From Ottowia testudinis (GTDB taxonomy: Bacteria; Pseudomonadota; Gammaproteobacteria; Burkholderiales; Burkholderiaceae_C), in assembly GCF_017498525.1 (NCBI RefSeq), contig NZ_CP071796.1, positions 3,720,001-3,784,000 of the forward strand: a DNA stretch of 64,000 nucleotides, written 5' to 3'. The notes under the pieces were generated by a model, which was not told where the DNA came from, made no database searches, and worked only from the letters and a program-made list of their open reading frames with translations. This document shows, one piece after another, positions 18,000 through 36,994 of the stretch. The position numbers and the translations under genes are program-made. Each line of letters begins with the position of its first letter. Positions within the stretch are counted from its first letter, which is position 1.

Positions 18000-18929
18000 T
18001 CACCAGGCGCGCGCCAACTGTGCAAAGCCGGCCGGCGCTTTCTTCTCGTCATCGAAGCTGACGATTTCATGCGCGCCTTCTTGCGCCAGCAGGGCGCGCA
18101 GCAACTTGTTGTTCAGCGCGTGGCCCGAGCGGAAGGCGCTGTAGGCGGCCAGCATGGGTTTGCCGACGCAATACAGGTCGCCGATGGCATCCAGCATCTT
18201 GTGCTTGGCGAATTCCTCCGCGTAGCGCAGGCCGTCGGCGTTGAGCACCTTGGTGTCGTCCATGACGATGGCGTTGTCGAGCCCGCCGCCCAGCGCCAGA
18301 CCGTTGGCGCGCATCATGTCCAGATCCTTGCTGAAAGCAAAGGTGCGGGCGCGCGCGATGTCTCGGCTATAGCGGCCCGAGGCCATGTCAAACTCCACCC
18401 GCTGCACGGTGGCATCGACCACCGGGTGCTGAAAATCGATCTCGAAGCTGAGCGTGAAGCCGTGGTGCGGATCAAGCCGAGCCCACTTGAGCTGATCGCC
18501 CTCGCCCTCGCGCACTTCCACCGGCTGCTTGACGCGCAAAAACTTCTTGGGGGCTTTTTGCAGCTCGATGCCCGCGCTTTGCAACAGGTAGACGAAAGAT
18601 GAAGCCGAGCCGTCGAGGATGGGCACCTCTTCGGCAGTGATGTCGATGTAGAGGTTGTCCAGACCCAAGCCGGCGCAAGCCGACATGAGGTGTTCGACGG
18701 TGCGCACCTTGGCATCGCCCGCCGACAGGGTGGAGGCCAGGCGCGTGTCGGTCACCGCCAGCGCGCGCACCGGAATATCCACCGGCTGCGGCAGATCAAT
18801 GCGGCGGAACACGATGCCGGTGTCTGGCGGCGCCGGGCGCAGCGTCAGCTCCACCCGCTCGCCGCTGTGCAGGCCCACGCCGACGGCGCGGGTGAGGGAC
18901 TTGAGGGTGCGTTGCGCAAGCATGGGCAT
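18000..18929 (-). CDS. lpxC: UDP-3-O-acyl-N-acetylglucosamine deacetylase
   Basis: A zinc amidase of 309 residues that commits precursors to lipid A. Zinc ligands are in [17 protein letters not shown] (His) and [17 protein letters not shown] (His and Asp), and the catalytic His is in [15 protein letters not shown]. It is the last gene of the dcw cluster, 204 bp past ftsZ, with a family A repeat and a family B block in the gap. The start may be the ATG at 18929 or the one two codons later. Confidence 0.96.
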
Positions 18930-18965
18930 ATTCTAAATTCGGTCACGCCAGCCCGCTTGGGAAGG

Positions 18966-19020
18966 AAATCGGCCCCCAGCCCTTGCAAATCAAGCGCAAG
19001 AAGCTACCGATTCAATAGCG
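18966..19020 (+). repeat. Family A palindromic repeat between ftsZ and lpxC
   Basis: CCAGCCCTTG-N5-CAAGCGCAAGAAGCTACCGATTCAATAG is a slightly decayed copy upstream of lpxC. Confidence 0.72.
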
Positions 19021-19047
19021 CCCAAGCTGTCATCTGGTACGCTGCCA

Positions 19048-19131
19048 TCGCCAGGGCACCCGCGGAAGGCTTTGCCGCCCGCTGGGTGCGCCCCCTTGAG
19101 GGGGAGGCGCGCAGCGCCTCGGGGGTGAGCC
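19048..19131. repeat. Family B GC-rich dispersed repeat after ftsZ
   Basis: CGCCCCCTTGAGGGGGAGGCGCGC and GCGCCTCGGGGG form strong hairpins ending 3 bases from the ftsZ stop codon. They may attenuate or stabilise the ftsZ message. Confidence 0.6.
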
Positions 19132-19133
19132 AA

Positions 19134-20360
19134 TCAATCCGCTTGCTTGCGCAAGAAAGCCGGAATCTCGAAGTCGTCCATGCCGCCGGAAGACAGCGCA
19201 TCGACCTTGGCCGCGGCCTGCGTGCGGTTGGTGCGCCACACGCTGGGCACGGCCATGTTGCCGTAGTCCGGCTGCTGTTGCGCGGTGTGGCCCATGCCGC
19301 CGCCCACCGGCTGGTTCAGCGTCGGCACGTGGAACGGCACGTTGTCGGTGCCGGTGCGCAGGCCGCCCTGCACCACGGTGATGGGCTGGCGGCGCACGCC
19401 CTGGCGCGACAGGCCAGTGGCCAGGACGGTGACACGGATCTCATCGCCCAGCGAATCGTCGTAGGCGGCGCCATAGATCACATGCGCCTCGGGCGAGGCA
19501 TAGGCGCGGATGGTGTTCATGGCCTCTTTCGACTCGTTCAGCTTGAGCGTGCCCTTGGAAGCGGTGACCAGCACCAGCACGCCCTTGGCGCCCGACAGGT
19601 CGATGCCTTCCAGCAGCGGGCAAGCCACGGCCTGCTCGGCGGCGATACGGGCGCGATCGGGGCCGCTGGCGGTGGCCGTGCCCATCATGGCCTTGCCGGG
19701 CTCGCCCATCACGGTGCGGACGTCCTCGAAGTCGACGTTGACGTTGCCGTAGTTGTTGATGATCTCGGCAATGCCGCCCACGGCGTTTTTCAATACATCG
19801 TTGGCTTGGGCAAACGCTTCTTCCTGGGTGATGTCGTCGCCCAGCACTTCGAGCAGCTTTTCGTTCAGCACCACGACCAAAGAATCGACGTTGGCTTCCA
19901 GCTCGGTCAGGCCAGCTTCGGCGTTGGTCATGCGGCGGCCGCCTTCCCAGTCGAACGGCTTGGTGACCACGGCGACGGTGAGGATACCCATGTCCTTGGC
20001 GATGCGCGCGATGACCGGCGCCGCGCCGGTACCGGTGCCCCCACCCATGCCGGCGGTGATGAACAGCATGTGCGCGCCGCGAATCGCCTGGCGAATGTCG
20101 TCGGACGCCGCTTCGGCGGCCTCGCGCCCCTTGTCGGGCTTGCTGCCCGCGCCCAGCCCGCTGTTGCCCAGCTGGATCGATGCGCTGGCCAGCGTGCGGC
20201 TGAGCGCCTGCGCATCGGTATTGGCACACACGAAGTCGACGCCCTGCACCTGGCGCGAAATCATGTGGTCGACCGCGTTGCTGCCGCCGCCGCCGACGCC
20301 GATCACCTTGATCAGCGTGCCCGCATGAAAACCGTCCGTCTCAATCATCTCGATGCTCAT
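19134..20360 (-). CDS. ftsZ: Cell division protein FtsZ
   Basis: A tubulin-like GTPase of 408 residues that forms the Z ring. The N-terminal nucleotide motif is IKVIGVGGGGSNAVDHM, the tubulin signature is AGMGGGTGTGAAPVIA and the T7-loop-like NNYGNVNVDFEDV follows. After a variable linker (Gly/Gln-rich, about residues 325-390) the protein ends DDFEIPAFLRKQAD, the conserved peptide that binds FtsA and ZipA. The ATG is preceded by AAGGAGTG. ftsA lies 250 bp upstream, with a family B block between. Confidence 0.97.
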   Translation of the reverse strand: MSIEMIETDGFHAGTLIKVIGVGGGGSNAVDHMISRQVQGVDFVCANTDAQALSRTLASASIQLGNSGLGAGSKPDKGREAAEAASDDIRQAIRGAHMLFITAGMGGGTGTGAAPVIARIAKDMGILTVAVVTKPFDWEGGRRMTNAEAGLTELEANVDSLVVVLNEKLLEVLGDDITQEEAFAQANDVLKNAVGGIAEIINNYGNVNVDFEDVRTVMGEPGKAMMGTATASGPDRARIAAEQAVACPLLEGIDLSGAKGVLVLVTASKGTLKLNESKEAMNTIRAYASPEAHVIYGAAYDDSLGDEIRVTVLATGLSRQGVRRQPITVVQGGLRTGTDNVPFHVPTLNQPVGGGMGHTAQQQPDYGNMAVPSVWRTNRTQAAAKVDALSSGGMDDFEIPAFLRKQAD

Positions 20361-20494
20361 GATGTCACTCCTTGTCTGCCTGCAGTTGCCGTGAATGGAA
20401 AGAAATTGAATGTGCTGTTGTGTTGGTCCGACCTGATGCGCTCGTCAAAACGGGCCCAGATCGGCGGCCCCGTGCTTTGCCAATGACAGGAAGA

Positions 20495-20610
20495 GGCTCG
20501 AGAGGCTGCGGAGCAAGCCGCACGCGAAACGCCGTGGAACAGGCCTGGCCCGGCCACTGGCGTTGTCCTCCCTGCAGGGGGGAAGGCGCGTAAGCGACTC
20601 AGGGGGGTCA
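20495..20610. repeat. Family B GC-rich dispersed repeat between ftsA and ftsZ
   Basis: GGCTGCGGAGCAAGCCGC, CCACTGGCGTTGTCC and GGGGGGAAGGCGCGTAAG then CGACTCAGGGGGG. It is closely similar to the block at 29040-29150 and ends at the ftsA stop codon. Confidence 0.72.
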
Positions 20611-21840
20611 TCAAAAATTCCCCACGATGAAGTCCTTGAAGCGCCCAAAGGCACTTTTGACGCCACTGGTCTTTTGCGCCACCTTGTAGCCGCGCAGCCG
20701 TGCCTCGCGCGCCTCTTCCATCAGCCCCATGACGGTGGCCGCGCGCGGCTGCGCCACCATGTCGGACAAGGCGCGCGAATACTTCGGCACCCCGCGCCGC
20801 ACGGGCTTGAGGAAGATGTCTTCGCCCAGCTCGACCATGCCCGGCATGACGGCGCTGCCCCCCGTCAGCACCACGCCCGACGACAGCACCTCTTCAAAAC
20901 CCGAGTCGCGGATCACCTGCTGCACCAGGGAAAAAATCTCTTCCACGCGCGGCTCGATCACGCCGGCCAACGCCTGGCGGCTCAGCATGCGCGGCGTGCG
21001 GTCGCCCAGGCCCGGCACCTCGACCTGCGTGTCGGCGTCGGCCAGCAACTGCTTGGCGCAGCCGCTGGCCACCTTGATCTCCTCGGCGTCCATGGTCGGC
21101 GTGCGCAGGGCCATGGCGATGTCGCTGGTGATGAGGTCGCCGGCGATCGGGATCACCGCCGTGTGGCGGATCGATCCGCCGGTGAAGATGGCCACGTCGG
21201 TGGTGCCGGCGCCGATGTCGACACAGACCACGCCCAGCTCGCGCTCGTCGTCGGTCAGCACCGCCTGGCTCGATGCCAGCGGGTTGAGCATGAGCTGATC
21301 GACGTCCAGCCCGCAGCGGCGCACGCACTTGATGATGTTCTCGGCCGCACTTTGCGCGCCGGTGACGATGTGCACCTTGGCTTCCAGCCGCATGCCGCTC
21401 ATGCCCACCGGCTCGCGCACGTCCTGGCCGTCGATGACGAATTCCTGCGGCTCGACCAGCAGCAGGCGCTGGTCGCTGGAGATGTTGATGGCCTTGGCCG
21501 TTTCGACCACGCGCGCCACGTCGATCGGCGTCACTTCCCGGTCCTTCACGGCCACCATGCCGCTGGAGTTGATGCCGCGGATGTGGCTGCCGGTGATGCC
21601 GGTGTAGACGCGGCCGATCTTGCAGTCGGCCATCAGCTCGGCCTCTTTCAGCGCCTGCTGGATGCTGGCCACCGTGGCGTCGATGTTGACCACCACGCCG
21701 CGCTTGAGGCCGTTGCTGGGCGCCACGCCCAGGCCGGCGAGCTTCAGGTCGCCGCCAGCCAGCACCTCGCCCACCACCACCATGATCTTGGCGGTGCCGA
21801 TGTCGAGGCCGACGATCAAGTCCTTGTACTCTTTTGCCAT
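20611..21840 (-). CDS. ftsA: Cell division protein FtsA
   Basis: An actin-like ATPase of 409 residues that tethers FtsZ to the inner membrane and recruits later divisome proteins. LIVGLDIGTAKIMVVVGE opens the protein (phosphate 1), VCVDIGAGTTDVAIFTGG is phosphate 2, and VVLTGGSAVMPGMVELGE is the adenosine motif. The C-terminal SAFGRFKDFIVGNF is an amphipathic membrane-targeting helix. It lies 34 bp after ftsQ in the same operon. Confidence 0.97.
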   Translation of the reverse strand: MAKEYKDLIVGLDIGTAKIMVVVGEVLAGGDLKLAGLGVAPSNGLKRGVVVNIDATVASIQQALKEAELMADCKIGRVYTGITGSHIRGINSSGMVAVKDREVTPIDVARVVETAKAINISSDQRLLLVEPQEFVIDGQDVREPVGMSGMRLEAKVHIVTGAQSAAENIIKCVRRCGLDVDQLMLNPLASSQAVLTDDERELGVVCVDIGAGTTDVAIFTGGSIRHTAVIPIAGDLITSDIAMALRTPTMDAEEIKVASGCAKQLLADADTQVEVPGLGDRTPRMLSRQALAGVIEPRVEEIFSLVQQVIRDSGFEEVLSSGVVLTGGSAVMPGMVELGEDIFLKPVRRGVPKYSRALSDMVAQPRAATVMGLMEEAREARLRGYKVAQKTSGVKSAFGRFKDFIVGNF

Positions 21841-21874
21841 GGGGTCACCCGCTGCCTGTGCTCTCTTTTTTATA

Positions 21875-22669
21875 TCAACGTTTGGCTGCCGGCTGAGCGT
21901 CGGGCCGCACGGTGGTCACACCGCGCAAGCGCAGGGCGTAACCGCCGGCGTGCCTGAGATCCGCCGCCTCGACCGCATCCACGGCGCGTTGATGGCGCGC
22001 CGCCACTTCCTTCACCGTTCCCACGAATTGCGTCAATCGCGCAGCCAGCGCCTGCGGCGTGCCATGGCCCAGTTCGACGACGGCGCCGCTGTCCAGCTCA
22101 ACCTGCCAGTTGCCGCGTGGCCGCAAGGCAAGCTGCGCGACATGCGTGTCCAGTGGCGCCACAAGCGGGTTCAGCATGCGGTGCATTTCGATCAACCGGG
22201 GCGCCTGGCCTTCGGGGCCCACCAGCACGGGCATATCGCGCTCGTCCAGGTCGTTGCCGCCGGCGGCATCGAATACTTCGCCAAAACTGTTGACCAGGCG
22301 CGTGTCGTCCTCGCCCCAATGCGCGACCGCCCTGTGCTCCTGCAGCCTGACGTTGAGCCGGCCAGGAAACTCGCGCTGCACCACGGCTTGGCGCACCCAC
22401 GGCGCCGACTGGAAGGCCACCTGCGCGGCCGACAGATCAAGCGTGAAGAAGTTGCCAGTGAGCGAAGGCACCACGGCGGCGCGCAGGCTGGCGGCGCTGT
22501 TGTGCGTGGTGTCGCCCGCGACCACGATCTGCCGGATGGCGAACGCTGGGTTGCGCAACACCCACCACAGGCCTGCCGACACACCGGCCAGCACCAAGCC
22601 GGTGACGAGCAGCGCGGTCGTCGCGTTCATCAACCGAACGTCGATCGGCAAGGGCAGCGTGCTCGTCAT
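21875..22669 (-). CDS. ftsQ: Cell division protein FtsQ
   Basis: A 264-residue bitopic membrane protein linking FtsL/FtsB to other divisome parts. It has a short cytoplasmic start, a helix at about residues 16-35, and a periplasmic POTRA domain opening [19 protein letters not shown]. FtsQ-type segments follow ([40 protein letters not shown]). The ATG at 22669 overlaps the ddl stop by four bases (ATGA), so the start is well supported. Confidence 0.93.
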
Positions 22670-23643
22670 GCGCGCGGCTCCACGGCCGGCGCGTAGTCCA
22701 GCGAGGCGCCCGCCAGCAATTGCAGGCACAGCGTTTCGTAGTCGATGCCGGCCGCCTTGGCGGCCATGGGCACCAGCGAATGGCTGGTCATGCCAGGCGA
22801 GGTGTTGATCTCCAGCAAATAGGGCAGGCGCGTGGCGGCATCGATCATCACGTCGAGCCGGCCCCAACCGCGGCAACCCAGCACGCGATACGCCTTGAGC
22901 ACCAGCGCCTGGATGGCCGCCTCTTCGCCCGGCGGCAGATCGCACGGCACGCGGTATTCGGTGTCGTCGGTGTAGTACTTGTTCTGGAAGTCGTAATTGC
23001 CTTCCGGCGCCACGATGTGGATCACCGGCAGCGCACGCGCGCTGACGCCTTCGCCCAACACCGGGCAGGTCACTTCGTCGCCGGCAATGAACTGCTCGCA
23101 CAGGATGTCGGCATCCAACTCGGCTGCGGCCGCGACTGCATCCTGCATCTGCGAGTAGCCCATGACCTTGGTCACGCCCAGCGACGAGCCCTCGCGCACC
23201 GGCTTGACGATCAGCGGCAGCCCCAGTTCATCTGGAATGGTGCGCACCTCATTGCGGGTGTAATGACCACGGTGCAGCAACGCATAGCGCGGCGTCGGCA
23301 GCCCCTCGGCCAGCCACACGCGCTTGGTCATCACCTTGTCGATCGCCATGCTGGAGGCCATGACGCCAGCGCCGGTGTACGGAATGCCGAGCAGCTCCAG
23401 CGCGCCCTGCACCGTGCCGTCTTCACCGTAGCGGCCGTGCAGCGCGATGAAGCAGCGCGCGAAGCCCTGGCGTTTCAACTCGTCCATGGATTGCTCGGCC
23501 GGATCGAACGCGTGCGCATCCACCGCGCGCGCGCGCAGCGCGGTCAGCACGCCCTGGCCGGACATCAGCGAAACCTCCCGTTCCGCCGACTTGCCGCCCA
23601 TCAGCACCGCCACTTTTCCGAATTGAACGCCTGCTTGCAACAT
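22666..23643 (-). CDS. ddl: D-alanine--D-alanine ligase
   Basis: An ATP-grasp ligase of 325 residues that makes the D-Ala-D-Ala used by MurF. Landmarks are [58 protein letters not shown] and [20 protein letters not shown] ending in [20 protein letters not shown]. Its gene position between murC and ftsQ indicates the DdlB form. The gene overlaps ftsQ by four bases and is separated from murC by 11. Confidence 0.96.
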
Positions 23644-23654
23644 GGTGTTTTGAA

Positions 23655-25073
23655 TCAGCCGGGATTATGCTCAGTTTTTTGTAGCATTTCAACGATTTTT
23701 GCCGAAATCGCACCGATCGTTCCGGCACCCATGCACATCACGACGTCACCGCCTCGCGCCTGGGCCGCAATCAGCTGCGGCAGATCGGTCACGTCATCGA
23801 CGAAAAGCGGCTCCACCCTGCCCGCCACGCGCACCGCGCGCGCCAGCGAGCGGCCGTCGGCGGCGACGATGGGCTCTTCGCCAGCGGCATAGACCTCGGT
23901 CAGCACCACGTGGTCGGCGCTGCCCAGCACCTTGACGAAATCCTCGAAGCAGTCGCGCGTGCGGCTGTAGCGGTGCGGCTGAAACGCCAACACCAGGCGC
24001 CGGCCGGGGAAGGCCCCGCGCGCGGCCGCCAGCGTGGCCGCCATCTCGACCGGGTGGTGGCCATAGTCGTCGATCACCGTGAACGTGCCGCCGCCCGGCG
24101 CCGGCACGTCGCCATAACGCTGGAAGCGCCGGCCCACGCCCTTGAAGTCGGCCAGCGCCTTTTGCACCGCGGCATCGGGGATGCTCAGCTCGACCGCGAC
24201 GGCGATGGCCGACAGCGCGTTCAGCACGTTGTGCTCGCCCGCCAGGTTGAGCACGATGGGCAGATCGGGCAGCGTGACGCCGTTGCGGCGCTGCACGGTG
24301 AAGCGCATCTGGCCGTCCACGGCGCGCACATCGATGGCGCGCACCTGCGCGTCCTCGGCAAAGCCGTAGGTGGTCACCGGGCAGGCCAGGTTGCCGGCGA
24401 TCTCGCGCACCGCCGGGCTTTCGAGACACAGGATGGCGGTGCCGTAGAACGGCATGCGGTGCAGGAAGTCGACAAACGCCTTTTTCAGGTTGCCGAAATC
24501 GTGCCCATAGGTCTCCATGTGGTCGGCGTCGATGTTGGTGACGACCGCCATGACGGGCAGCAGGTTGAGAAAGGACGCATCGGACTCATCCGCCTCGACC
24601 ACGATGTAGTCGCCCGAGCCCAGGCGCGCGTTGGCGCCGGCGGAATTGAGGCGCCCGCCGATGACGAAGGTCGGGTCGAGCCCCGCCTCGGCCAGCACGC
24701 TAGCGACCAGGCTGGTGGTGGTGGTCTTGCCGTGCGTGCCGGCAATCGCGATGCCTTGCTTGAGACGCATCAGCTCGGCCAGCATCATGGCGCGCGGCAC
24801 CACGGGGATGCGCTTTTCGCGCGCGATCAGCACCTCGGGGTTGTCGTCCTTGACGGCGGTCGATGTCACGACCGCGTCGGCACCCTCGACATGCGCGGCG
24901 GCGTGCCCCACGAACGTGCGGATGCCCATGCCACCCAGCCGGCGCAGCGTGGAGCTGTCGGCCAGGTCGGAGCCGGAGATGACGTAGCCCAGGTTGTGCA
25001 GCACCTCGGCGATGCCGCTCATGCCGGAGCCGCCCACGCCGACGAAATGGATGTGACGGATGGCGTGTTTCAT
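23655..25073 (-). CDS. murC: UDP-N-acetylmuramate--L-alanine ligase
   Basis: A Mur ligase of 472 residues that adds L-Ala to UDP-MurNAc in the cytoplasm. [18 protein letters not shown] is the N-terminal UDP site, [17 protein letters not shown] the ATP P-loop, [12 protein letters not shown] the central acidic motif and [18 protein letters not shown] the C-terminal domain. The ATG at 25073 has GGAGG upstream. The first 36 bases of the gene are duplicated upstream at 25123-25158, so murC no longer overlaps murG directly. Confidence 0.96.
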
Positions 25074-25158
25074 CGGACGGCCTCCGTGCATCCGGAAGAC
25101 ACGTCGGCGTCTTGCCAGCATGCGACGAAATGGATTTGACGGATGGCGTGTTTCATCG
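25040..25158 (-). repeat. 83-bp-offset direct repeat of the murC start
   Basis: Bases 25040-25075 (around the murC start) and 25123-25158 (at the murG stop) are a 36-bp direct repeat with one mismatch. The upstream copy contains its own ATG at 25156 that overlaps the murG stop as ATGA. It opens a 28-codon frame starting [19 protein letters not shown], whose TGA overlaps the true murC ATG. This looks like a tandem duplication at the old murG/murC junction. Confidence 0.85.
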
Positions 25159-26229
25159 CGCAGTCAACTCCTCGCAAGCTGCCACCACATCCTCCACGGC
25201 ATGAATTTTTTGCATCATTTTGGCTGCCAGCGCTTGCTGGACAAGCGCGGGGCGCTCTGTTTTTTGAAGCATATCAGCCAACCCTTCAGGGGTCAGGTCG
25301 CGCTGCTGGACGAGCCGGCCGGCCCCCTGATCGACCAGGAATTTCGCGTTGGTGGTCTGGTGATCGTCCACCGCGTGCGGAAAGGGCACGAACAGCGCGG
25401 CGGCGCCGATGGCGGCGATCTCCGTCACCGTGGTCGCGCCGGCGCGGCAGATCACCAGGTCGGCATCGGCATAAGCCTGCGCCATGTCGTCGATGAAAGG
25501 CACCAGCTCGGCCTGCACGCTGGCGGCTTGATAGTTGGCGCGCAGGGCATCGATCTGCCTGGCGCCGCTCTGGTGCACCACCTGCGGGCGCCGGTCGGGC
25601 GGCATCAACGCCAGCGCCTTGGGCACCACGTCGTTCAGCGCCTGCGCGCCCAGGCTGCCGCCCACCACCAGCACCTTCAGTGGCCCGCTGCGGCCGGCGA
25701 AGCGCGTGGCCGGATCGGGCACCTGCTTGAACGCCTCGCGCAATGGGTTGCCCACCCATTGCACCTTGCGCGCCTTCGGCAAGACGCCGGGAAACGCCGT
25801 GAACACGCGGTCGGCGATGTGCGCCAGCACCTTGTTGGCCATGCCGGGGATGGAGTTCTGCTCGTGCAGCACCAGCGGCTTGTTCAAGGCCACGCCCATC
25901 AAGCCGCCGGGAAAGGTGATGTAGCCGCCAAAGGCGACCAGCACGTCGGGCTTGACGCGGCGGATCACGCCGACGCTCTGGGCGAAGGCTTTGAGCAGGC
26001 GCAACGGCAGCATGAACAGCGTGGCCGCGCCCTTGCCGCGCACGCCGCCGAACTCGACCGGCTCGAAGGCGTAGCCGCGCGGCGGCACGAGTTGCGCCTC
26101 CATGCTGCCGGGCACGCCCAGCCAGTGCACGCGCCAGCCGCGCGCGCGCAAGCCATCGGCCACGGCCAGGCCGGGGAAGATGTGGCCGCCCGTGCCGCCG
26201 GCCATGACCAGGGCGCATTTCTGGCTCAT
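25153..26229 (-). CDS. murG: UDP-GlcNAc:lipid I N-acetylglucosaminyltransferase
   Basis: A GT28 glycosyltransferase of 358 residues that converts lipid I to lipid II on the inner membrane face. [20 protein letters not shown] is the first Gly-rich loop, [14 protein letters not shown] the second, [15 protein letters not shown] the third, and [16 protein letters not shown] with [15 protein letters not shown] line the UDP site. The ATG at 26229 overlaps the ftsW stop (ATGA). Residues about 322-337 ([13 protein letters not shown]) are encoded by a family A repeat. Confidence 0.96.
25218..25265 (-). repeat. Family A palindromic repeat inside murG
   Basis: In the coding direction it reads GCGCTTG-N5-CAAGCGCTGGCAGCC, giving [10 protein letters not shown] in the same phase as the MidA-type and dapF copies. 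It lies close to the murG C-terminus. Confidence 0.7.
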
Positions 26230-27500
26230 GTGCGCCCTCCGCGCATCAATCGCCGGTTCTCCACGTCGACCCGCAGCACGATGGCGATCGCCACCATGTT
26301 GGCCAAAATGGCCGAGCCGCCGTAGCTCATGAAGGGCAGCGTCAGTCCCTTGGTCGGCAGCGCGCCCAGGTTGACGCCGATGTTGATGAAGGCCTGAAAG
26401 CCCAGCCACAGGCCGATGCCTTGCGCCACCAGCCCCGAGAACACGCGATCCAGCGCGATGGCCTGGCGGCCGATGTGCATGATGCGGCGCGTGAGCCAGA
26501 AGAACAGCAGGATCACGCACACCAGGCCGATGAGTCCGAACTCTTCGCCGATCACCGCCAGCAGAAAATCGGTGTGCGCCTCGGGCAGCCAGTGCAGTTT
26601 CTCGATGCTGCCGCCCAGGCCAACGCCGAACACCTCGCCGCGCCCGATGGCGATCAGCGCGTGCGACAGCTGGTAGCCCTTGCCCAGCGCGTGCTCCTCG
26701 CTCCAGGGGTCAAGGTAGGCAAAGATCCTGTCGCGCCGCCAGGGCGAAGCCCAGATCATCATCGCAAAGGCCACCACCAGCACGGCGGCGATCATGAAGA
26801 ACATGCGCGCGTTGACACCACCCAGAAACAAAATGCCCATGGCGATGACCGCGATCACCATGAAGGCGCCCATATCGGGCTGCGCCAGCAGCAGCGCCCC
26901 CACCACACCGACCGCCACGCCCATCGGCAGCACGGCCCGGAAAAAGCGCTCCTTGACCTCCATCTTGCGCACCATGTAGTCGGCGGCGTAGAGCAGCACG
27001 GTGATCTTGGCCACCTCGGACGGCTGAAAACTCATGGGGCCGAGCGCTATCCAGCGCCGCGCGCCGTTGACCACGCTGCCGACGTGCGGTATCAGCACCG
27101 CGATCAGCAGCCCCAGCGAGCCGACAAACAGCCACGGCGCGGCCTTTTCCCACCAGTCCATGCGCACCTGGAAGGCGATCAACGCGGCCACGAAAGACAG
27201 ACCGATCCACATCGCGTGCCGCATCACGAAGTAGTGAGGCGAGTAGCGCGCGAAGCGTGGGCTGTCCGGCAGCGCGATGCTGGCCGAATACACCATCACC
27301 AAACCCCACGCCATCAGCGCGACGCAAGCCCAGATGAGCGCCTGATCGAAGCCCAGCACGCGCGCGGGCGTGCTGGCGGTGCGCGCGTATTCCATGCCGC
27401 CGATGCGCACCGGCAGCTCATCGGCCGGGCGCTTCTTGGCGCGCGAGGCGCGCGGCTTCTTGCCGCCGGGCGGATGCATGGCGTCGGTGACGGCGGTCAT
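26226..27500 (-). CDS. ftsW: Septal peptidoglycan polymerase FtsW (SEDS family)
   Basis: A 424-residue integral membrane glycosyltransferase that works with FtsI at the septum. A basic cytoplasmic extension of about 50 residues ([14 protein letters not shown]) precedes ten predicted helices. Motifs are [52 protein letters not shown] and the C-terminal [18 protein letters not shown]. Both ends overlap neighbours by four bases (murD and murG). Confidence 0.96.
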
Positions 27501-29023
27501 GCCAGCAGCTCCAGGCCGGTGCCGGCGGCCAGCGCCAGATCGCGCACGGCGGCGCGGAACACCTCGGCGCGCTCGGCGTAATTTTTGTACATATCGAGGC
27601 TGGCGCAGGCGGGTGACAGCAGCACGGCGTCGCCGCTGTGGGCACGGGCCCGCGCCTGAGCCACTGCGTCGGCCATGCCGGTGGCGTCCAGCAGCGGCAC
27701 GCCAGCGTCCACCAAGGACGCGCGCAGCTGCGGCGCGTCGCGGCCGATCAGCACCACGGCGCGCACGAAGCGCGATACCGGCGCGGCGAGTGGCGAAAAG
27801 TCTTGCCCCTTGCCGTCACCGCCCAGGATCACGACCAGCTTGCGCTCGGCGCCCAGGCCCTCCAGCGCGGCCACGGTGGCGCCCACGTTGGTGCCCTTGC
27901 TGTCGTCGAAATATTCCACGCCATCGAGCAGGCCGATGGACTCGACGCGGTGCGGCTCGCCACGGTATTCGCGCAGTCCATACAGCATGGGCCCGAGCGC
28001 GCAACCAGCGCTGGCGGCCAGCGCCAATGCGGCAAGCGCGTTGACAGCGTTGTGGCGCCCGCGGATGCGCAGTGCGTCGGCAGGCATCAGCCGCTGGATG
28101 TGCAGCTCGGGCTCGGCGCCCTTGCGACGGCGCTGCGTTTCGTCGGCTTCCAGCGCGCGCACCAGCCAGGCCATGCCACCCACCACTTCGATGCCGAAGT
28201 CGCCCGGCGCGGCCGGCATGCCGGCGCCGAAAGTCAGCACCGTGCGCGGCTCGGATTTCGGCATGCCCTTGGGCGCCTTGACCGGGGGTGCGGGACGCAT
28301 GGACATCACGGCGGCATCGTCACGGTTGAGCAGCATGACGCCGTGGTCGCCAAAGATGCGCGCCTTGGCCGCCGCATAGGCCGCCATGCCGCCGTGCCAG
28401 TCCAGATGGTCTTGCGTGACGTTGAGCACCGTGGCGGCGGTGGGCTCGAAATTTTCCACGCCGTCGAGTTGGAAGCTCGACAGCTCCAGCACCCACACCT
28501 CGGGCAAGGTGCCGGCCGACAGGTGCGCCTGCAGCGTGTCCAGCAGCGTCGGCCCGATGTTGCCGGCCACGACCACCGAACGGCCGGCGCGCGCCACCAG
28601 CTGCCCGGTCAGCGCCGTCACCGTCGTCTTGCCGTTGGTGCCCGTGATGGCCAGCAGCGCAGGCTGGTAGCCTGCGGTTTGCTTCAAATCAGATAGCGCC
28701 TGGGTGAACAGATCCAGCTCGCCACCTACCGGCAGCCCGCGCTCTCGCGCGGCCTGCACCACGCCCGCGATGCTGGCCGGCGCCAAGCCAGGGCTGCGGT
28801 ACACGGCGCGCAGGCTGGGATCATGGAGCAGCGATGCATCCATCGCGCCGTGAACGAAGCGCGCGGCGGGCACCTGCTGGCGCAGCGCGTCCAGCTGCGG
28901 TGGCGCCTCGCGCGTATCGACCACGGTGACTTGCGCACCTTGCCCCGCGCACCAGCGCGCCATGGCCAGGCCCGACAGGCCCAGGCCAAGAATCAGCACG
29001 TGACGGTCTTGCAACAAGCTCAC
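27497..29023 (-). CDS. murD: UDP-N-acetylmuramoyl-L-alanine--D-glutamate ligase
   Basis: A Mur ligase of 508 residues, longer than the usual 440 or so. It adds D-Glu to UDP-MurNAc-L-Ala. Motifs are [48 protein letters not shown] and [19 protein letters not shown]. Extra length comes mainly from a loop at about residues 245-310 ([14 protein letters not shown] and [13 protein letters not shown]). A family B block separates it from mraY, breaking the run of overlaps. Confidence 0.95.
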
Positions 29024-29039
29024 GCCGCGATCTCCATGA

Positions 29040-29150
29040 TCTGCAGGCTGCGGAGCAAGCCGCGCCAGAACGCCGTCGCCGGACCTGCGCCGGCGACTGG
29101 CGTTGTCCCCCTCAGGGGGAAGGCGCGTAAGCGACTCAGGGGGGTACTCA
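29040..29150. repeat. Family B GC-rich dispersed repeat between mraY and murD
   Basis: GGCTGCGGAGCAAGCCGC, GCGACTGGCGTTGTCCCCC, TCAGGGGGAAGGCGCGTAAG then CGACTCAGGGGGG. It ends at the mraY stop and interrupts an otherwise overlapping operon. Confidence 0.72.
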
Positions 29151-29152
29151 TT

Positions 29153-30331
29153 TCACCGCAGCTTCAGTGAAGACAAACCCACCAGGCACAGCAGCATGGT
29201 GATGATCCAGAAGCGCACCACGACCTGCGTCTCGGCCCAGCCGCTTTTCTCGAAGTGGTGGTGCAGCGGCGCCATCTTGAGCAGCCGCCGCCCCTCGCCG
29301 AAGCGGCGCCTGGTGTACTTGAAGTACGTCACCTGCAGCATCACCGACAGCGCCTCGACCACGAAGATGCCGCCCATGATGGCCAGCACGATTTCCTGCC
29401 GCACGATGACCGCTATGGTTCCAAGAGCGCCACCCAGCGCCAGCGCGCCGACGTCGCCCATGAACACCTGCGCCGGATGGGCGTTGAACCACAGAAAGGC
29501 CAGCCCGGCGCCCGCCATGGCGGCGCAGAAGATCAGCAGCTCGCCCGTGCCCGGAATGTGCGGAAAAAGCAGGTACTTGGCATACACCGAGCTGCCCGTG
29601 ACGTAGGCAAAGATGCCCAGCGCCGAGCCGACCATGATGACCGGCATGATGGCCAGCCCGTCCAGCCCGTCGGTCAGGTTCACGGCATTGCTGGAGCCCA
29701 CGATGACCAGGTAGCTCAGGATCACGAAGCCCGCCACGCCGAGCGGATAGGTGATCTCCTTGAAAAACGGCAGCAGCAGGCCCGCGGCGTGGGGCAGGTC
29801 GATGGTGAAGCCGGACGACACCCAGCCCACGAACAACGCCCACACCTGCGCGTTGGATGCGCCCGAGATGGCAAAGGCCAGGTACAGCGCCGCCAGCAGG
29901 CCGATCACCGACTGCCAGAAGTACTTCTCGCGCGAGCGCATGCCCTCCGGGTCCTTGCGCACCACCTTGCGCCAGTCGTCGGCCCAGCCAATGGCGCCAA
30001 AGCCGAAGGTGACCACCATCACGATCCACACGAAGCGGTTGGACCAGTCGAACCACAGCAGGGTCGAGATGGCGATCGACAGCAGGATCAGCACCCCCCC
30101 CATGGTGGGCGTGCCGCTTTTCGACAGGTGCGTCTCCATGGCGTAGCCGCGCACCGGCTGACCGATTTTCAACTCGGTCAGCTTGCGGATCACCCAAGGC
30201 CCGGCCGCGATGCCGATGACCAGCGCCGTCATGGCCGCCATCACGGCGCGGAAGGTGAGGTACTGGAAGACGCGAAAAAACCCGAACTCGGGTGACAGCG
30301 CCTGCAGCCAAGTGGCCAGACTAAGCAGCAT
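29153..30331 (-). CDS. mraY: Phospho-N-acetylmuramoyl-pentapeptide-transferase
   Basis: A polytopic membrane enzyme of 392 residues that makes lipid I from UDP-MurNAc-pentapeptide and undecaprenyl phosphate. Key segments are [36 protein letters not shown] (acidic pair), [16 protein letters not shown] and [16 protein letters not shown], with [15 protein letters not shown] near the C-terminus. The ATG at 30331 has GGAGGG five bases upstream and overlaps the end of murF by 11 bases. A GTG two codons earlier is an alternative. Confidence 0.96.
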
Positions 30332-31748
30332 GGACACCCTCCGCTTTGCCGCTGGCGGGCACCGACAAGGCGTCCACCACGCGCTCCATGCGCATTAAGC
30401 GCGAGCCCTTGACGGCGATGGCGCCGCACTGCGGCAGGTGGGTACGCACGGCGTCGGTCAATGCCGCCATGTCGTCGAAGTGCCTGCCGCCGCCGAAGGC
30501 CATGGCGGCGTGGATCGCCTGCGGCCCGTGCGCCAGCAGGCGTTCGATGCCGCGCTCGCGCGCGTAGGCGCCCACCTCGGCGTGAAATGCCGGGCCTTGG
30601 CCGCCCACCTCGCCCATGTCCCCCAGCACCAAGAGGCGCGGGCCGGGCAACTCGGCCAACACGTCGATGACGGCGCGCACCGAATCGGGGTTGGCGTTAT
30701 AGGTGTCGTCCACCAGCGTGATGGCGCGGCCGCGGTGGCGCAACAGCAGCGTGCGCGAGCGGCCTTTCACGGGGCGGAAGGCGCTCAAACCTTGGGCGAT
30801 GGCGGCCAGCGGGGCGCCAGCGGCCATGGCGCAGGCGATGGCGGCCAGTGCGTTGCGCAGGTTGTGGCGGCCGGCTGCATGCAAATCGAACGCCAGGCCC
30901 CCCGCCGGCGTGCGGGCCGTGGCTTGCCAATGCTCGGCACGCCAGGCAGCGCTTTCCAGAGACACATGGGCGCCGCCGGATTGCTCTCCAAACAATAGCT
31001 GCTCGCGCTTGCCAGAAAAGCGCTGCCACGTTTTTTCATATTGATCACCGGCGGGAAACACGGCCGTGCCGCGTTCGCCCAGCGCGGCCAGCACGGCGCC
31101 GTTTTCCTCGGCCACGGCCTGCACGCTGGCCATGAATTCCTGATGCTCGCGCTGCGCGTTGTTGACCAGCGCCACCGTCGGCTGGGTCATGGCAGCCAAC
31201 TGCGCGATTTCGCCCGGGTGGTTCATGCCCAGCTCAACCACCGCCACTTGCGTGGACGGCCGCAAGCGCAGCAGCGTCAGCGGCACGCCGATGTCGTTGT
31301 TGAAATTGCCCTGCGTGGCCAGCGCCGCCTCGGCCTTCCAGGCATGCAGGATGGACGCGATCATTTGCGTGACGGTGGTCTTGCCGTTGCTGCCGGTGAC
31401 GGCGATCAGCGGGCCGGCAAAGCGCTGGCGCCAGGCGTGCGCCAGCTCGCCCAGCGCACGGCGCGCGTCGGGCACCAGCACGCCGGGCAGACCGGCCGCG
31501 AGCAGCTGCTCCTCAGCCGTTTCGTCGCACAGAACGCCCGCCGCGCCCCCCTCGGCGGCGGTGGACAGAAACGCGGCGGCGTCGAAACGCTCGCCCCTCA
31601 GCGCCACGAACAAATCGCCCGGCTGCAGCGTGCGCGTGTCGGTGTGCACGCGCGCGCAGCGCACGGCGGCATCGCCCACCAGACGCGCGCCCGTGAGCCA
31701 GGGGGCGATGTCGCCGAGCAAAAGGTTCATGCCGCTCATGCCGCTCAT
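30321..31748 (-). CDS. murF: UDP-MurNAc-tripeptide--D-alanyl-D-alanine ligase
   Basis: A Mur ligase of 475 residues that attaches D-Ala-D-Ala to complete the pentapeptide. Motifs are [65 protein letters not shown] and [19 protein letters not shown]. The start at 31748 overlaps the murE stop (ATGA). It is followed by two tandem ATGAGCGGC units, so three in-frame ATGs lie within seven codons. Residues 236-253 ([12 protein letters not shown] region) come from a family A repeat. Confidence 0.96.
30990..31041 (-). repeat. Family A palindromic repeat inside murF
   Basis: In the coding direction it reads CAGCGCTTT-N5-AAGCGCGAGCAGCTATTGTTT. The encoded [12 protein letters not shown] matches the peptide made by the copy in the RNB ribonuclease (QRLPIQREQLSF). 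Confidence 0.8.
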
Positions 31749-33247
31749 GCCGATGCCTCCGCCGAGGCGGCACGCTGGGCAAGCACGCGGCGCGCCACGG
31801 CCTGGTCGGAGAACGGCAGGCGCTGGCCGCGCACTTCCTGGTAGTCCTCATGTCCCTTGCCGGCGATCAACACCACGTCCACCGGAGCCGCCTGCGCGAG
31901 CGCCAGCGCGATGGCCTCGGCGCGGTCGATCTGCACCAGCGCGGCCTCGGCGCGCCGCAGGCCGGCGCGCATGGCGTCGATGATGGCGCGCGGCTCTTCG
32001 TCGCGCGGGTTGTCGCTGGTCAGCACCACGCGGTCGGCTTGACGTTCGGCGGCGGCGGCCATCAGCGGGCGCTTGGCGCTATCGCGGTTGCCGCCGCAGC
32101 CCAGCACGCACCACAGGCGGCCGCCGCGCCGAGCGGCTAGCGGGCGCAGCGCCTGCAGGGCCTGATCAACCGCATCGGGTGTGTGCGCGTAGTCGACCAC
32201 GGCGAGCGGTGCGCCAGCCACGTCTATGCGCTCCATGCGGCCAGGCACGGCGGGCAGGCCGGTGCAGGCGGCCACGGCCTGCGTCAGATCCATCCCCAGC
32301 GCGCGCAGCGTGCCCAGCACGCACATCAGGTTGGCGACGTTGTAGCCGCCAACGAGTTCGGTATGCAGAGGTTCAGTTCGTTCGCCTTCCCGGACACCCC
32401 ACGCCAGCCCGCACTCGCCATAGCTCACATCCACCGCCCGCAGGCGCGCCGGGTGCTGTCGCGACACCGTCCAGACGTCGAGCCCACGTGCCTCGGCCTG
32501 CCGCGCCAACTCAGCGCCACGCGGGTCGTCAAGACAAATGACGGCCGCCCGCAGGTCCGGCCAGTTGAACAGCTCGGCCTTGGCGCGCCAATAAGCGTCC
32601 ATGCTGCCGTGGTAGTCGAGGTGATCCTGCGTGAAGTTGGTGAAGACGGCGACGCGGATCGCCGTGCCGTCGAGCCGCCGCTCTACGATGCCGATCGACG
32701 AGGCCTCGATCGCGCACGAGCGAGCTCCCGCGTCGACGAAGCCGCGCAGACGCTGCTGCAGCAAAACGGGGTCAGGCGTGGTCATGCCGGTGGCCTCGAG
32801 ACGAACCGGAAGACCAACACCCAAAGTACCCACCAGAGCGCACGGAGCAAGCGCAGTCAGCTCACTTTTCGATAGTGCCCAGGCCAACCACCAGGCGGTG
32901 GATGTCTTGCCGTTGGTGCCGGTGATGGCGACGACGTTGAGCGATTCCGACGGCGTCTGGTAGTACGCGGCGGCGATCGGGCCGGTGGCGGCCTTCAGTT
33001 GTGCGTAAGTGGCGACTTCGGGCTGATCAAAGCCGAAGGCTTCGGCGCCCACCTGCTCGACCACGCAGGCGCTGGCGCCTTGCGTGAGCGCGGCGTTCAC
33101 ATATCGACGGCCGTCGGCCGCAGCGCCCGGCCAGGCAATGAAGCCATCGCCCGCTTCCACGCGCCGGCTGTCGGCATGCAGCACGCCGGTGACGCGCGCG
33201 CGCAACCAGCGCGCCGCGTCTTGGGGGGTATGCAGCGCCGTGGTCAA
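31745..33247 (-). CDS. murE: UDP-MurNAc-L-Ala-D-Glu--2,6-diaminopimelate ligase
   Basis: A Mur ligase of 500 residues that adds the third peptide residue. [18 protein letters not shown] is the P-loop region, NFTQDHLDYHGSMDAYWRAK the central motif and DYAHTPDAVDQALQALRPLA the C-terminal domain. TSDNPRDEEPRAIIDAM matches the DNPR motif of meso-diaminopimelate-specific MurE. The gene overlaps both ftsI and murF by four bases. Residues about 123-138 may derive from a decayed family A repeat. Confidence 0.96.
   Translation of the reverse strand: MTTALHTPQDAARWLRARVTGVLHADSRRVEAGDGFIAWPGAAADGRRYVNAALTQGASACVVEQVGAEAFGFDQPEVATYAQLKAATGPIAAAYYQTPSESLNVVAITGTNGKTSTAWWLAWALSKSELTALAPCALVGTLGVGLPVRLEATGMTTPDPVLLQQRLRGFVDAGARSCAIEASSIGIVERRLDGTAIRVAVFTNFTQDHLDYHGSMDAYWRAKAELFNWPDLRAAVICLDDPRGAELARQAEARGLDVWTVSRQHPARLRAVDVSYGECGLAWGVREGERTEPLHTELVGGYNVANLMCVLGTLRALGMDLTQAVAACTGLPAVPGRMERIDVAGAPLAVVDYAHTPDAVDQALQALRPLAARRGGRLWCVLGCGGNRDSAKRPLMAAAAERQADRVVLTSDNPRDEEPRAIIDAMRAGLRRAEAALVQIDRAEAIALALAQAAPVDVVLIAGKGHEDYQEVRGQRLPFSDQAVARRVLAQRAASAEASA
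32833..32880 (-). repeat. Possible decayed family A repeat inside murE
   Basis: GAGCGCACGGAGCAAGCGC, AGTCAGCT and a TTTTCGATAG tail resemble family A but have lost much of the palindrome. The protein here is only about four residues longer than E. coli MurE by eye, so chance similarity is possible. Confidence 0.4.
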
Positions 33248-34980
33248 AACGACTCCTCGACCTGCTGGGCCACGATGGCGGGCTTCACGGCCATGTCGGG
33301 CTGCACGCCCATGATGCGCAGCGTCTGCTGCACCACTTCGCTGAACACGGGGGCAGCCACCGCACCGCCGTAATAGACGCCGTTGCTGGGCTCATCGACC
33401 ATCACCGCGACGATCACGCGCGGCTTGTCGATCGGCGCCATGCCGGTGAACCAGGCGCGGTACTTGTTGCTGGCGTAGCCCTTGCCCTGCTGCTTGCGCG
33501 CGGTGCCGGACTTGCCGCCGACCGAGTAGCCCACGGTCTGCGCGCGCTGGCCAGTGCCACCGGGGCCGGCGGCCATCTCCAGCATCTTGCGCACGGCGCG
33601 GGCGTTTTTCTCGGAGAACACGCGCAGGCCATCGACCACGGCGCCCTCTGGCGCCTTGACCAGCGTGGCGGGGATGACGCGGCCATCGTGCGAGAACGCG
33701 GTGTATGAGTGCGCCATCTGGAACAGCGAGGCCGACAGCCCGTAGCCGTAGGCCATGGTGGCCTGCTCGACGGGGCGCCAGCTCTTCCAATGGCGCACGC
33801 GGCCGATGGCCGCGCCGGGAAAGGTCAAATCCGGTTTGCGGCCATAGCCCAGCGCCGCGTAGGTCTCCCACATCTGCTGCGCCGTCAGGCGCTGCGCAAT
33901 CTTCAGTGAGCCGACGTTGCTTGACTTCTGCACCACGCCCTCAACGGTGAGCGTGCCGTAGTTGTGCGTGTCGCGGATGGTGAACTTGTCTAGCTTGTAG
34001 CTGCCCGGCGCGGTGGGTATCTGGGTCTGTGGCGTCACCTTGCCAGCTTCGAGCGCCATGGCAACGGTGATCGGCTTCATGGTCGAGCCGGGCTCGAAGG
34101 TGTCGGTCAGCGCGATGTTGCGCAGCTGCGCGCCACTCAGGCTGCGGCGGTTGTCGGGCGAGTAGCTGGGATAGTTGGCCAGCGCCAGCACCTCGCCGGT
34201 CTGCGCGTCCAGCACCACCACGCTGCCGGATTTGGCCTTGTGCTCGGCCACGGCGTCGCGCAGCTTTTGGTAGGCAAAGAACTGCACCTTGGAGTCGATC
34301 GACAGCTGCACGTCCTGGCCGTCGACCGGCGGCACCTCGTCGCCCACCGCCTCGACCACGCGGCCCAGGCGATCCTTGATGACGCGGCGCGAACCGGCCT
34401 TGCCGGCGAGCTGCTTCTCGAAAGACAGTTCGGCGCCTTCCTGCCCCTTGTTTTCGACGTTGGCAAAGCCCACCACGTGCGCGGCGGCTTCGCCTTCAGG
34501 GTACTTGCGCTTGTATTCCTTGCGCTGGTGGACGCCGGCGATCTTCAGCTCGGCGATCTGCTTGGCCACCGGCTCGTCGACCTGGCGCTTGAGCCAGACG
34601 AAGGTCTTGTCCTCGTCGCTGAGCTTCTTGTTCAGCTCGGACATCGGCATGCCCAGCAGCTTGGCAAGCTGCTGCAGCTTGGCGGGATGGCGCTCCACAT
34701 CATCTGGAATCGCCCAGATGCTGGGCGCCACCACGCTGGAGGCCAGCAGCAGGCCGTTGCGGTCGAAGATGCGGCCGCGGCTGGCCGGCATCTCGAGCGT
34801 GCGGGCAAAACGCACCTCGCCCTGGCGCTGGAAGAACGCATTGCCAATCACCTGCACGTAGGCCGCGCGGCCGACCAGCACGATGAAGGCCAGCGCCAGC
34901 ATCGCCACGATGAACTTGCTGCGCCACACCGGCGTCTTGGACGCCAGCAGCGGGCTGGAGGTGTATCGGATGTCCCTCAT
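33244..34980 (-). CDS. ftsI: Septal transpeptidase FtsI (PBP3)
   Basis: A class B penicillin-binding protein of 578 residues that cross-links septal peptidoglycan with FtsW. One membrane anchor (residues about 22-44) is followed by the pedestal (PASRGRIFDRNGLLLAS). The transpeptidase has EPGSTMKPI (Ser299 nucleophile), KSSNVGSLK and VGGKSGTARK. The ATG at 34980 overlaps ftsL by four bases and the stop overlaps murE by four. Confidence 0.97.
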   Translation of the reverse strand: MRDIRYTSSPLLASKTPVWRSKFIVAMLALAFIVLVGRAAYVQVIGNAFFQRQGEVRFARTLEMPASRGRIFDRNGLLLASSVVAPSIWAIPDDVERHPAKLQQLAKLLGMPMSELNKKLSDEDKTFVWLKRQVDEPVAKQIAELKIAGVHQRKEYKRKYPEGEAAAHVVGFANVENKGQEGAELSFEKQLAGKAGSRRVIKDRLGRVVEAVGDEVPPVDGQDVQLSIDSKVQFFAYQKLRDAVAEHKAKSGSVVVLDAQTGEVLALANYPSYSPDNRRSLSGAQLRNIALTDTFEPGSTMKPITVAMALEAGKVTPQTQIPTAPGSYKLDKFTIRDTHNYGTLTVEGVVQKSSNVGSLKIAQRLTAQQMWETYAALGYGRKPDLTFPGAAIGRVRHWKSWRPVEQATMAYGYGLSASLFQMAHSYTAFSHDGRVIPATLVKAPEGAVVDGLRVFSEKNARAVRKMLEMAAGPGGTGQRAQTVGYSVGGKSGTARKQQGKGYASNKYRAWFTGMAPIDKPRVIVAVMVDEPSNGVYYGGAVAAPVFSEVVQQTLRIMGVQPDMAVKPAIVAQQVEESF

Positions 34981-35282
34981 GGCCGCGCCCCCCGCGGTGC
35001 CGAGGCAACGGGCAGCGCCACGGCCGACGTCACGTATTCTGTGATGGCGGGCGTGACGGTGCGCATGGCCAGCTTGTCCTTGGCCAGTTTCTCGACGCGC
35101 AGCGAAGTGGCCTCGGCCCGCTTTTCGACTTCGAGCCGGCCGCGCTCGACCTCCAGCCGGCGCGCTTCGGCGTTGGCGTGATCCAGCTCGGTGAACAGAC
35201 GGCGCGAATCGTATTGCACGCGCACCAGGTACATGGCCGAGAAGATCACGGCCGCCAGCAGGACGATGGAAAGGCGCGTCAT
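34977..35282 (-). CDS. ftsL: Cell division protein FtsL
   Basis: A 101-residue bitopic protein with a short cytoplasmic start, a membrane helix at about residues 4-22, then a coiled-coil ([19 protein letters not shown]) that pairs with FtsB. Its position between rsmH and ftsI, the size and the [18 protein letters not shown] segment identify it. Both ends overlap neighbours as ATGA. Confidence 0.94.
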
Positions 35283-36205
35283 GCCGCGCTCCCCACTGGC
35301 GCATCGGTGCGCTCGGCCACCCGCATCACGGCGCTGCGCGCGCGCGGGTTGGCGGCCACCTCGGCCGCGCTGGCGCGCACGCGGCCCAATGCGCGCAACA
35401 AGGTCGGCGGCGGCTCGGCAAACGGCGCGCGGCGGTCCACCACCGCCTTTGAATGGCGGGCGATGAACTGCTTGACGATGCGGTCTTCCAGCGAGTGGAA
35501 GCTGATCACCACGAGCCGGCCTCCGGGTTGCAGCACATGCAGGCTCGCCCCTAACGCCTGTTCGAGCTCTTCAAGCTCGGCGTTGACGAAAATCCGAACA
35601 GCCTGAAATGTGCGCGTTGCAGGGTTCTGGCCCGGCTCGCGGGTTTTGACCGCGCCAGCCACGAGTTCGGCCAGCTCAAGGGTGGTTGCAACAGGGCCCC
35701 GTTCCTGTCGGCGCGACACAATCGCCTTTGCAATGGGGCCAGCAAACCGTTCTTCGCCGTAATCACGAATCACCTCCGCGATGTGCCGTTGATCGGCCAC
35801 CGCCAGCCAGCCGGCCGCGCTCTGGCCGCGCGTGGGGTCCATGCGCATGTCCAGCGGGCCATCGGCACGAAAAGAAAAACCCCGGGCGGGGTTGTCGATC
35901 TGCGGCGAACTTATCCCTAAGTCCATCAGCACCCCAGCCGCGCTGCCCGGCGGCAACTCGCCCAGCGCGGCAAAGCCCTGGTGGCGAATCGAGAAGCGCG
36001 CGTCCTGGATGCGCGCCGCCTCGGCCAGCGCCTCGGGATCTTTGTCGTAAGCCATCAAGGCGCCGCGCGCACCCAGCCGCTGCAGGATCAGGCGCGCATG
36101 CCCGCCACGGCCAAACGTGGCATCCACGTACTGGCCTTGCGGGTCCGTGAGCAAGGCATCTGTCGCCTCGTTCAGCAAGACCGTGGTGTGTGACCATGCG
36201 TTCAC
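35279..36205 (-). CDS. rsmH: 16S rRNA (cytosine(1402)-N(4))-methyltransferase RsmH
   Basis: A SAM-dependent methyltransferase of 308 residues that modifies C1402 in the ribosomal P site. [19 protein letters not shown] opens the protein; [15 protein letters not shown] is the SAM motif, [20 protein letters not shown] the family signature, and [17 protein letters not shown] follows near the end. The GTG at 36205 was chosen because it gives the conserved start, with AAAGGA nine bases upstream. It begins 14 bases after mraZ. Confidence 0.95.
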
Positions 36206-36219
36206 CCGCCTTCGTCCTT

Positions 36220-36648
36220 TTAGAACACCAATTCCTCGAACGCCTGCGTCATGCCGGCCTGGATGGCTTCGGCTTCCTTGGCGTCGTAGGTGTCCTTGTC
36301 CCAAAGCTCGAAATGGCTGCCCATGCCCAGCAGCATGGCGTCGCGGGCCAAGCCGGCGGCCTGGCGCAGCTCGGGCGACACGAGCACGCGGCCGGTGCCG
36401 TCCATCTCCACGTCCATGGCGCTGCCCAGAAAAATGCGCTTGAGCCATTGGGCCGACATCGGCATGTGGGCGATGCGCTCACGGAACTTCTCCCACTCAG
36501 GGCGCGGGAACACCATCAAACAGCCGTGCGGATGCTTGGTGATGGTGAGTTGGCCCGATGCCGTCGCCGCCAGGACGTCACGATGCCGGGTGGGCACGGA
36601 AAGCCTCCCCTTTGCATCCAGACTGAGCGACGATGCCCCTTGAAACAC
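36220..36648 (-). CDS. mraZ: Transcriptional regulator MraZ
   Basis: A 142-residue AbrB-fold DNA-binding protein, first gene of the dcw cluster, known in E. coli to repress its own operon. Two MraZ units are seen: [20 protein letters not shown], then [20 protein letters not shown]. The GTG at 36648 gives the canonical start and has AGGGG six bases upstream. Four 10-bp direct repeats lie upstream at 36689-36723. The longer in-frame extension to 36702 would overlap those repeats and is not favoured. Confidence 0.95.
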
Positions 36649-36688
36649 GCGTTTCCCCTGTTGTGAGTGCCGCAATCCATAAGTGATG

Positions 36689-36748
36689 GCACTTTTCACC
36701 ACTTAATTGCACTTTTTTGCACTGTAGCAGGAAATGCAGGAGGTGCAA
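36689..36748 (-). promoter_or_regulatory. mraZ: Probable dcw promoter and MraZ operator
   Basis: On the minus strand, AGTG(C/G) occurs four times at exact 10-bp spacing (36689-36723): AGTGC, AGTGC, AGTGG, AGTGC, each followed by five bases. E. coli MraZ binds tandem 10-bp TGGGN5 repeats before its gene, so this is the expected layout with a shifted core. A possible promoter lies just upstream: TTGCAC at 36748-36743 and TACAGT at 36726-36721 with 16-bp spacing, the -10 touching the first repeat. Repeat spacing is seen directly, while the promoter is inference. Confidence 0.75.
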
Positions 36749-36994
36749 GGCGGCCTACAAATTATTTCAATGAAATCAAGAGCTTAGCTGGGTTTTCCAT
36801 CAGATATCCACATCAAAATCTCTTTGAAATGAGCAACTTAGCGCGCATAGTCAAAGTAACGTGCATGGCCATTGTGGATAAGTCCTCGGCAACGCCCGGC
36901 GTTGGCGGACGAGCTCGAGCAGCCGGTCGACCGCCGGCACTGGAGCGCTATTTTTCAGCAGCTGGCTGCGCTTATCCAGAAACGTTTTCAAGCT

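What the first reader, a model, noticed from the sequence alone, without database searches (positions are those of the whole stretch)
36689..36748. Four exact 10-bp-spaced AGTG(C/G) repeats upstream of mraZ
MraZ proteins in E. coli bind 10-bp-spaced TGGG repeats before their own gene. Here the repeat core is AGTG(C/G), four copies, starting at a possible -10 element. This predicts autorepression of the whole dcw cluster and a shifted MraZ recognition word in this lineage.
Basis: partly seen in the sequence, partly recalled or inferred. Interest (0 to 1): 0.6.

Follow-up and report, generated by a model that had tools for sequence, protein, structure and literature searches.

The report
MraZ operator before dcw cluster
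[quoted passage not shown] coli, Burkholderia and mycoplasmas, here with a one-base variation typical of this bacterial family.

Summary
On the minus strand, 36726-36687, four AGTG words lie exactly 10 bp apart (TACAGTGCAA AAAAGTGCAA TTAAGTGGTG AAAAGTGCCA). The first shares AGT with an extended -10 (TGC-TACAGT); mraZ starts at GTG 36648. It is the only such array in the 4.3-Mb genome, even allowing two mismatches. 142 of 155 distinct mraZ leaders have at least three GTG at period 10; no other period from 6 to 19 exceeds 5. So it is a real, conserved operator. The reading as an MraZ site is supported by conservation and by published work: B. cenocepacia MraZ binds a fragment carrying four 7-nt GTG repeats before mraZ. 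The 'shifted word' claim is only partly right: the GTG core is shared, and E. coli itself reads AGTGGG/TGTGGG/AGTGGG. What differs is the base after GTG: in Comamonadaceae C, C, G, C/T across boxes 1-4, against mostly G elsewhere. An ordinary new member of a known kind with a small family-specific twist. A possibly more interesting by-product is a second conserved element, CTAAG-N3-TTGATTTCATTG, about 55 bp upstream of the -10, single-copy where found; I saw no report of it in the papers I searched.

The parts
36743..36748 (-). -35-like hexamer TTGCAC
   Evidence: Sequence. TTG at this place is conserved in the family consensus at >=80%.
36721..36729 (-). extended -10, TGC-TACAGT; its last AGT is the start of box 1
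   Evidence: TGN-TANAGT in 98 of 99 family leaders with an array, 0 of 43 other order leaders and 0 of 25 class leaders.
36717..36726 (-). MraZ box 1: TACAGTGCAA
   Evidence: 10-bp register
36707..36716 (-). MraZ box 2: AAAAGTGCAA, at the expected transcription start
   Evidence: 10-bp register; start site inferred from -10 position
36697..36706 (-). MraZ box 3: TTAAGTGGTG; G after GTG is invariant in the family (88/88)
36687..36696 (-). MraZ box 4: AAAAGTGCCA
36220..36648 (-). mraZ, GTG start, 142 aa, SD-like AGGGG upstream
   Evidence: TIGR00242 112.5 bits, above cut-off; GTG start at the same place in 105 of 159 leaders
18000..36184 (-). rest of dcw cluster: rsmH (mraW), ftsL, ftsI, murE, murF, mraY, murD, ftsW, murG, murC, ddl, ftsQ, ftsA, ftsZ, lpxC order
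   Evidence: rsmH; ftsL, ftsI, murF, murD, ftsW, murC, ftsA, ftsZ, lpxC by NCBIfam; murE, mraY, murG, ddl, ftsQ inferred from position only. The 29148-30311 ORF (mraY position) had no NCBIfam match.
36758..36787 (-). second conserved element CTAAGCTCTTGATTTCATTGAAATAATTTG, function unknown
   Evidence: One copy in the genome; 53-56 bp upstream of the -10 in nearly all of the 84 of 102 family leaders that have it

Best explanation
The repeats are the operator of MraZ, a ring-forming (octameric) AbrB-fold regulator. Each 10-bp unit presents one AGTG(C/G) word on the same face of the helix, so neighbouring subunits of one ring can each dock on one box. Because box 1 overlaps the -10 and box 2 the expected start site, bound MraZ should exclude RNA polymerase, giving negative feedback on mraZ and the dcw genes behind it. 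Shown here: array, register, uniqueness, conservation, gene identity, overlap with a promoter-like sequence. Inferred: binding, oligomer docking, start site and sign of regulation.
For: Array unique in the genome. 142 of 155 distinct leaders have at least three GTG at period 10, against at most 5 at any other period from 6 to 19, and 54 of 31,000 in shuffles. 99 of 102 family leaders have the array, all with box 1 sharing AGT with a TANAGT hexamer. The same layout stands before E. coli mraZ, where MraZ represses from repeats upstream (Eraso et al. as cited in PMC7761207). MraZ of B. cenocepacia, same order, shifts a fragment with four 7-nt GTG repeats separated by 3 nt in front of mraZ (PMC7761207). 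Mollicute MraZ sites are AAAGTG[T/G] repeats (PMC8475190). MraZ of the window matches solved MraZ structures by sequence.
Against: No binding or expression data for this species. MraZ was reported as an activator in M. gallisepticum (cited in PMC7761207), so repression is not certain. Two same-genus genomes (G001, G005) keep mraZ but have a decayed array. The promoter scanner did not call this promoter because TTGCAC/TACAGT is a weak consensus match.
Confidence: 0.9

Rival explanations
1. Same MraZ operator, but net effect is activation or dual control rather than autorepression.
For: MraZ was reported as an activator in M. gallisepticum (cited in PMC7761207).
Against: Box 1 overlaps the -10 and box 2 the expected start site, which favours occlusion. 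MraZ represses in E. coli and M. genitalium (PMC7761207, PMC8475190).
Confidence: 0.07
2. The conserved stretch is kept as core promoter and initial transcribed sequence or by another regulator; the 10-bp repeats are not read by MraZ.
For: In the family the between-box bases (AAAAA, AATTA) are conserved too, and box 1 is part of the -10.
Against: The GTG register persists in lineages where between-box bases, distance to the start codon and -10 sequence differ. MraZ binding to the equivalent fragment is published in the same order.
Confidence: 0.03
3. Chance repeat.
For: None.
Against: Shuffles never reach three AGTG in register in the window leader; unique in genome; conserved.
Confidence: 0.001

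Closest known systems
E. coli MraZ boxes at Pmra
   Same: Words AGTGGG, TGTGGG, AGTGGG and a fourth degenerate word (AGGGGT) at exactly 10-bp spacing just before mraZ; MraZ represses mraZ and downstream genes (literature, via PMC7761207).
   Different: In E. coli the first good box starts a few bases after the -10 (TAAACT); here box 1 shares AGT with the -10. E. coli has G after GTG; here mostly C.
Burkholderia cenocepacia PmraBc MraZ site (PMC7761207)
   Same: Same order; four 7-nt GTG repeats with 3-nt spacers, overlapping the start site; one promoter for the operon; MraZ binds by EMSA.
   Different: The paper places the repeats downstream of its putative -10. The exact words were not available as text, so a base-by-base comparison was not made.
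Mollicute MraZ box AAAGTG[T/G] (Fisunov et al. 2016, as cited in PMC8475190)
   Same: AAAGTG core, direct repeats before mraZ.
   Different: T/G rather than C/G after GTG; activator role reported in M. gallisepticum.

Membership tests
MraZ (TIGR00242 / PF02381) | Protein scores above the curated cut-off, two MraZ domains | tested here: met
   TIGR00242 112.5 bits, cut-off 98.35; two PF02381 domains
MraZ operator (MraZ box array) | Three or more GTG-core words at about 10-bp direct-repeat spacing immediately upstream of mraZ | tested here: met
   Four words, exact 10-bp register
MraZ operator (MraZ box array) | Overlaps or follows the promoter -10 / start site | tested here: met
   Box 1 shares AGT with TACAGT; the promoter is predicted from sequence and the start site is not mapped
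MraZ operator (MraZ box array) | G-rich word TGGG as quoted for E. coli | tested here: not met
   Words are GTGC, GTGC, GTGG, GTGC. The GTG core is met; the Mollicute consensus also lacks TGGG, so TGGG is not taken as definitional.
MraZ operator (MraZ box array) | Conserved in relatives | tested here: met
   99 of 102 family, 43 of 54 order, 25 of 28 class leaders with at least three in register
MraZ operator (MraZ box array) | Bound by the cognate MraZ | not testable with these tools
   Needs EMSA or footprint; published for B. cenocepacia (PMC7761207)
dcw cluster | mraZ followed by division and peptidoglycan genes in order | tested here: met
   (rsmH, ftsL, ftsI, murF, murD, ftsW, murC, ftsA, ftsZ, lpxC identified)

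The most novel reading that the evidence does not exclude
Comamonadaceae MraZ and its operator have co-evolved to a family-specific, unequal array (C, C, G, C/T after GTG in boxes 1-4) fused with an extended -10, so the four boxes are not equivalent for the ring. A second, family-wide element (CTAAG-N3-TTGATTTCATTG, about 55 bp upstream of the -10) is the site of an undescribed further regulator of the dcw promoter.
Probability: 0.3. Interest if true: 0.4.

Novelty: new member of a known kind. Interest (0 to 1): 0.2.

Why it matters
It confirms that the MraZ feedback site of the division gene cluster is kept across Burkholderiales and shows which parts are fixed (GTG, 10-bp phase, overlap with the -10 in most leaders) and which drift (base after GTG). 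The family-level change gives a natural test of what MraZ reads beyond GTG, and the upstream element gives a concrete lead to further control of division genes.

Tried and rejected
DnaA boxes: one exact TTATCCACA (36873) and near-matches upstream, but exact boxes are present in only 2 of 92 family leaders, so not part of the system. A single MraZ residue explaining the G-to-C shift: about sixty columns separate family from non-family proteins, so phylogeny hides any causal residue; S17 and T20, near the DAKGR motif, also occur in E. coli, which uses GTGG, and so do not explain it. Rfam: only weak chance-level hits. Spacing 9/10/9 in Ottowia beijingensis (L022, L032) lies in A and G runs and may be an assembly error; not pursued. 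Eraso et al. 2014 is not held, so it is cited through PMC7761207 and PMC8475190. Nine leaders of the first set and seven of the second were not found by the start-motif search and were left out.

Full report
What is there. The window lies in a 4.32-Mb single-contig genome; the closest named record is Ottowia beijingensis, Comamonadaceae, with 87% MraZ identity. mraZ is on the minus strand, with conserved GTG start at 36648 and stop at 36220. Reading the minus strand towards mraZ gives TTGCAC (36748-36743), 16 nt ending in TGC, TACAGT (36726-36721), and four AGTG words with A at 36723, 36713, 36703 and 36693. The words are AGTGC, AGTGC, AGTGG, AGTGC. The AGT of the first is the end of the -10. 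The protein passes the MraZ equivalog model and heads a dcw cluster; ten further members were identified by profile and the others are assigned by position.

Chance. In 20,000 dinucleotide-preserving shuffles of the 200-nt leader, two AGTG in register is the most ever seen. In the whole genome there is no other triple AGTG at this spacing and no other quadruple even with two mismatches.

Conservation. In 155 distinct leaders from relatives, named Comamonadaceae and E. coli, 142 have three or more GTG at period 10, 121 of them four or more; other periods from 6 to 19 give 0-5. With further genomes: family 99 of 102, order 43 of 54, class 25 of 28. The first word is preceded by TAN in 99 of 99 family, 37 of 43 order and 17 of 25 class leaders, so overlap with the -10 is common. 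The TG extension is confined to the family in this sample (98 of 99; 0 of 68 outside). Two same-genus genomes have decayed arrays (G001, G005).

The word. E. coli K-12 has AGTGGG, TGTGGG, AGTGGG, AGGGGT in 10-bp register. The real family-level difference is the base after GTG: box 1 C in 79 of 88, box 2 C in 85 of 88, box 3 G in 88 of 88, box 4 C or T in 85 of 87. The order-level figures are G 27/29, 28/29, 28/29 and 16/21. In Mollicutes the same position is T/G (PMC8475190). The position is therefore variable between lineages, but it is kept unequal between boxes within this family. Whether that reflects MraZ specificity or promoter needs is open. The MraZ proteins differ at too many sites to name a cause.

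Mechanism. MraZ is an AbrB-like regulator, described as an octameric ring (PMC7761207, citing Fisunov et al.). Ten-bp phasing puts all words on one face of the helix, which fits several subunits of one ring docking in a row (inference). Box 1 on the -10 and box 2 on the expected start site imply that bound MraZ blocks RNA polymerase (inference). In B. cenocepacia, MraZ binds the corresponding fragment, with four 7-nt GTG repeats and 3-nt spacers overlapping the mapped start, and one promoter serves 15 genes (PMC7761207). Repression is shown in E. coli and M. genitalium; activation was reported in M. gallisepticum.

By-product. CTAAG-N3-TTGATTTCATTG lies at 36787-36768. TTGATTTCATTGAAA is found with at most two mismatches in 84 of 102 family leaders, nearly always 53-56 bp upstream of the -10, in 1 of 54 order leaders (at the same distance, 56) and in 0 of 28 class leaders. 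A pattern search found exactly one copy in each of the 16 of 30 family genomes that match. It is not the MraZ array, it has no credible Rfam match, and I saw no mention of it in the few papers read here, which is weak evidence of novelty. It may be a site for an activator or other regulator, or an upstream promoter element; this is untested.

Verdict. A correctly seen, well-conserved MraZ operator: known kind, new member, with a small family-specific word change.

Noticed in passing
window 36758-36787 (minus): Conserved element CTAAG-N3-TTGATTTCATTG(A/C)AA about 55 bp upstream of the mraZ -10, with inverted repeat ATTTCA-T-TGAAAT in the window; by pattern search one copy per genome where found (16 of 30 family genomes), 84 of 102 family leaders, almost absent outside the family.
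   Followed up: partly
window 36873-36881 and about 36804-36812: Exact DnaA box TTATCCACA and a near-match TGTGGATAT in the mraZ upstream region; shared with one close relative (L010) but not conserved in the family.
   Followed up: yes
L022 and L032 (Ottowia beijingensis): Box spacing reads 9/10/9 instead of 10/10/10 through one base fewer in A and G runs; either assembly error or a real phase change.
   Followed up: no
L190 (G005) and L189 (G001), same genus: mraZ kept but operator array decayed; possible loss of MraZ control in these lineages.
   Followed up: partly
MraZ of Comamonadaceae, alignment: Three-residue shorter linker (MPM-SAQW) and many family-specific residues compared with other Burkholderiales and gammaproteobacteria.
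   Followed up: no
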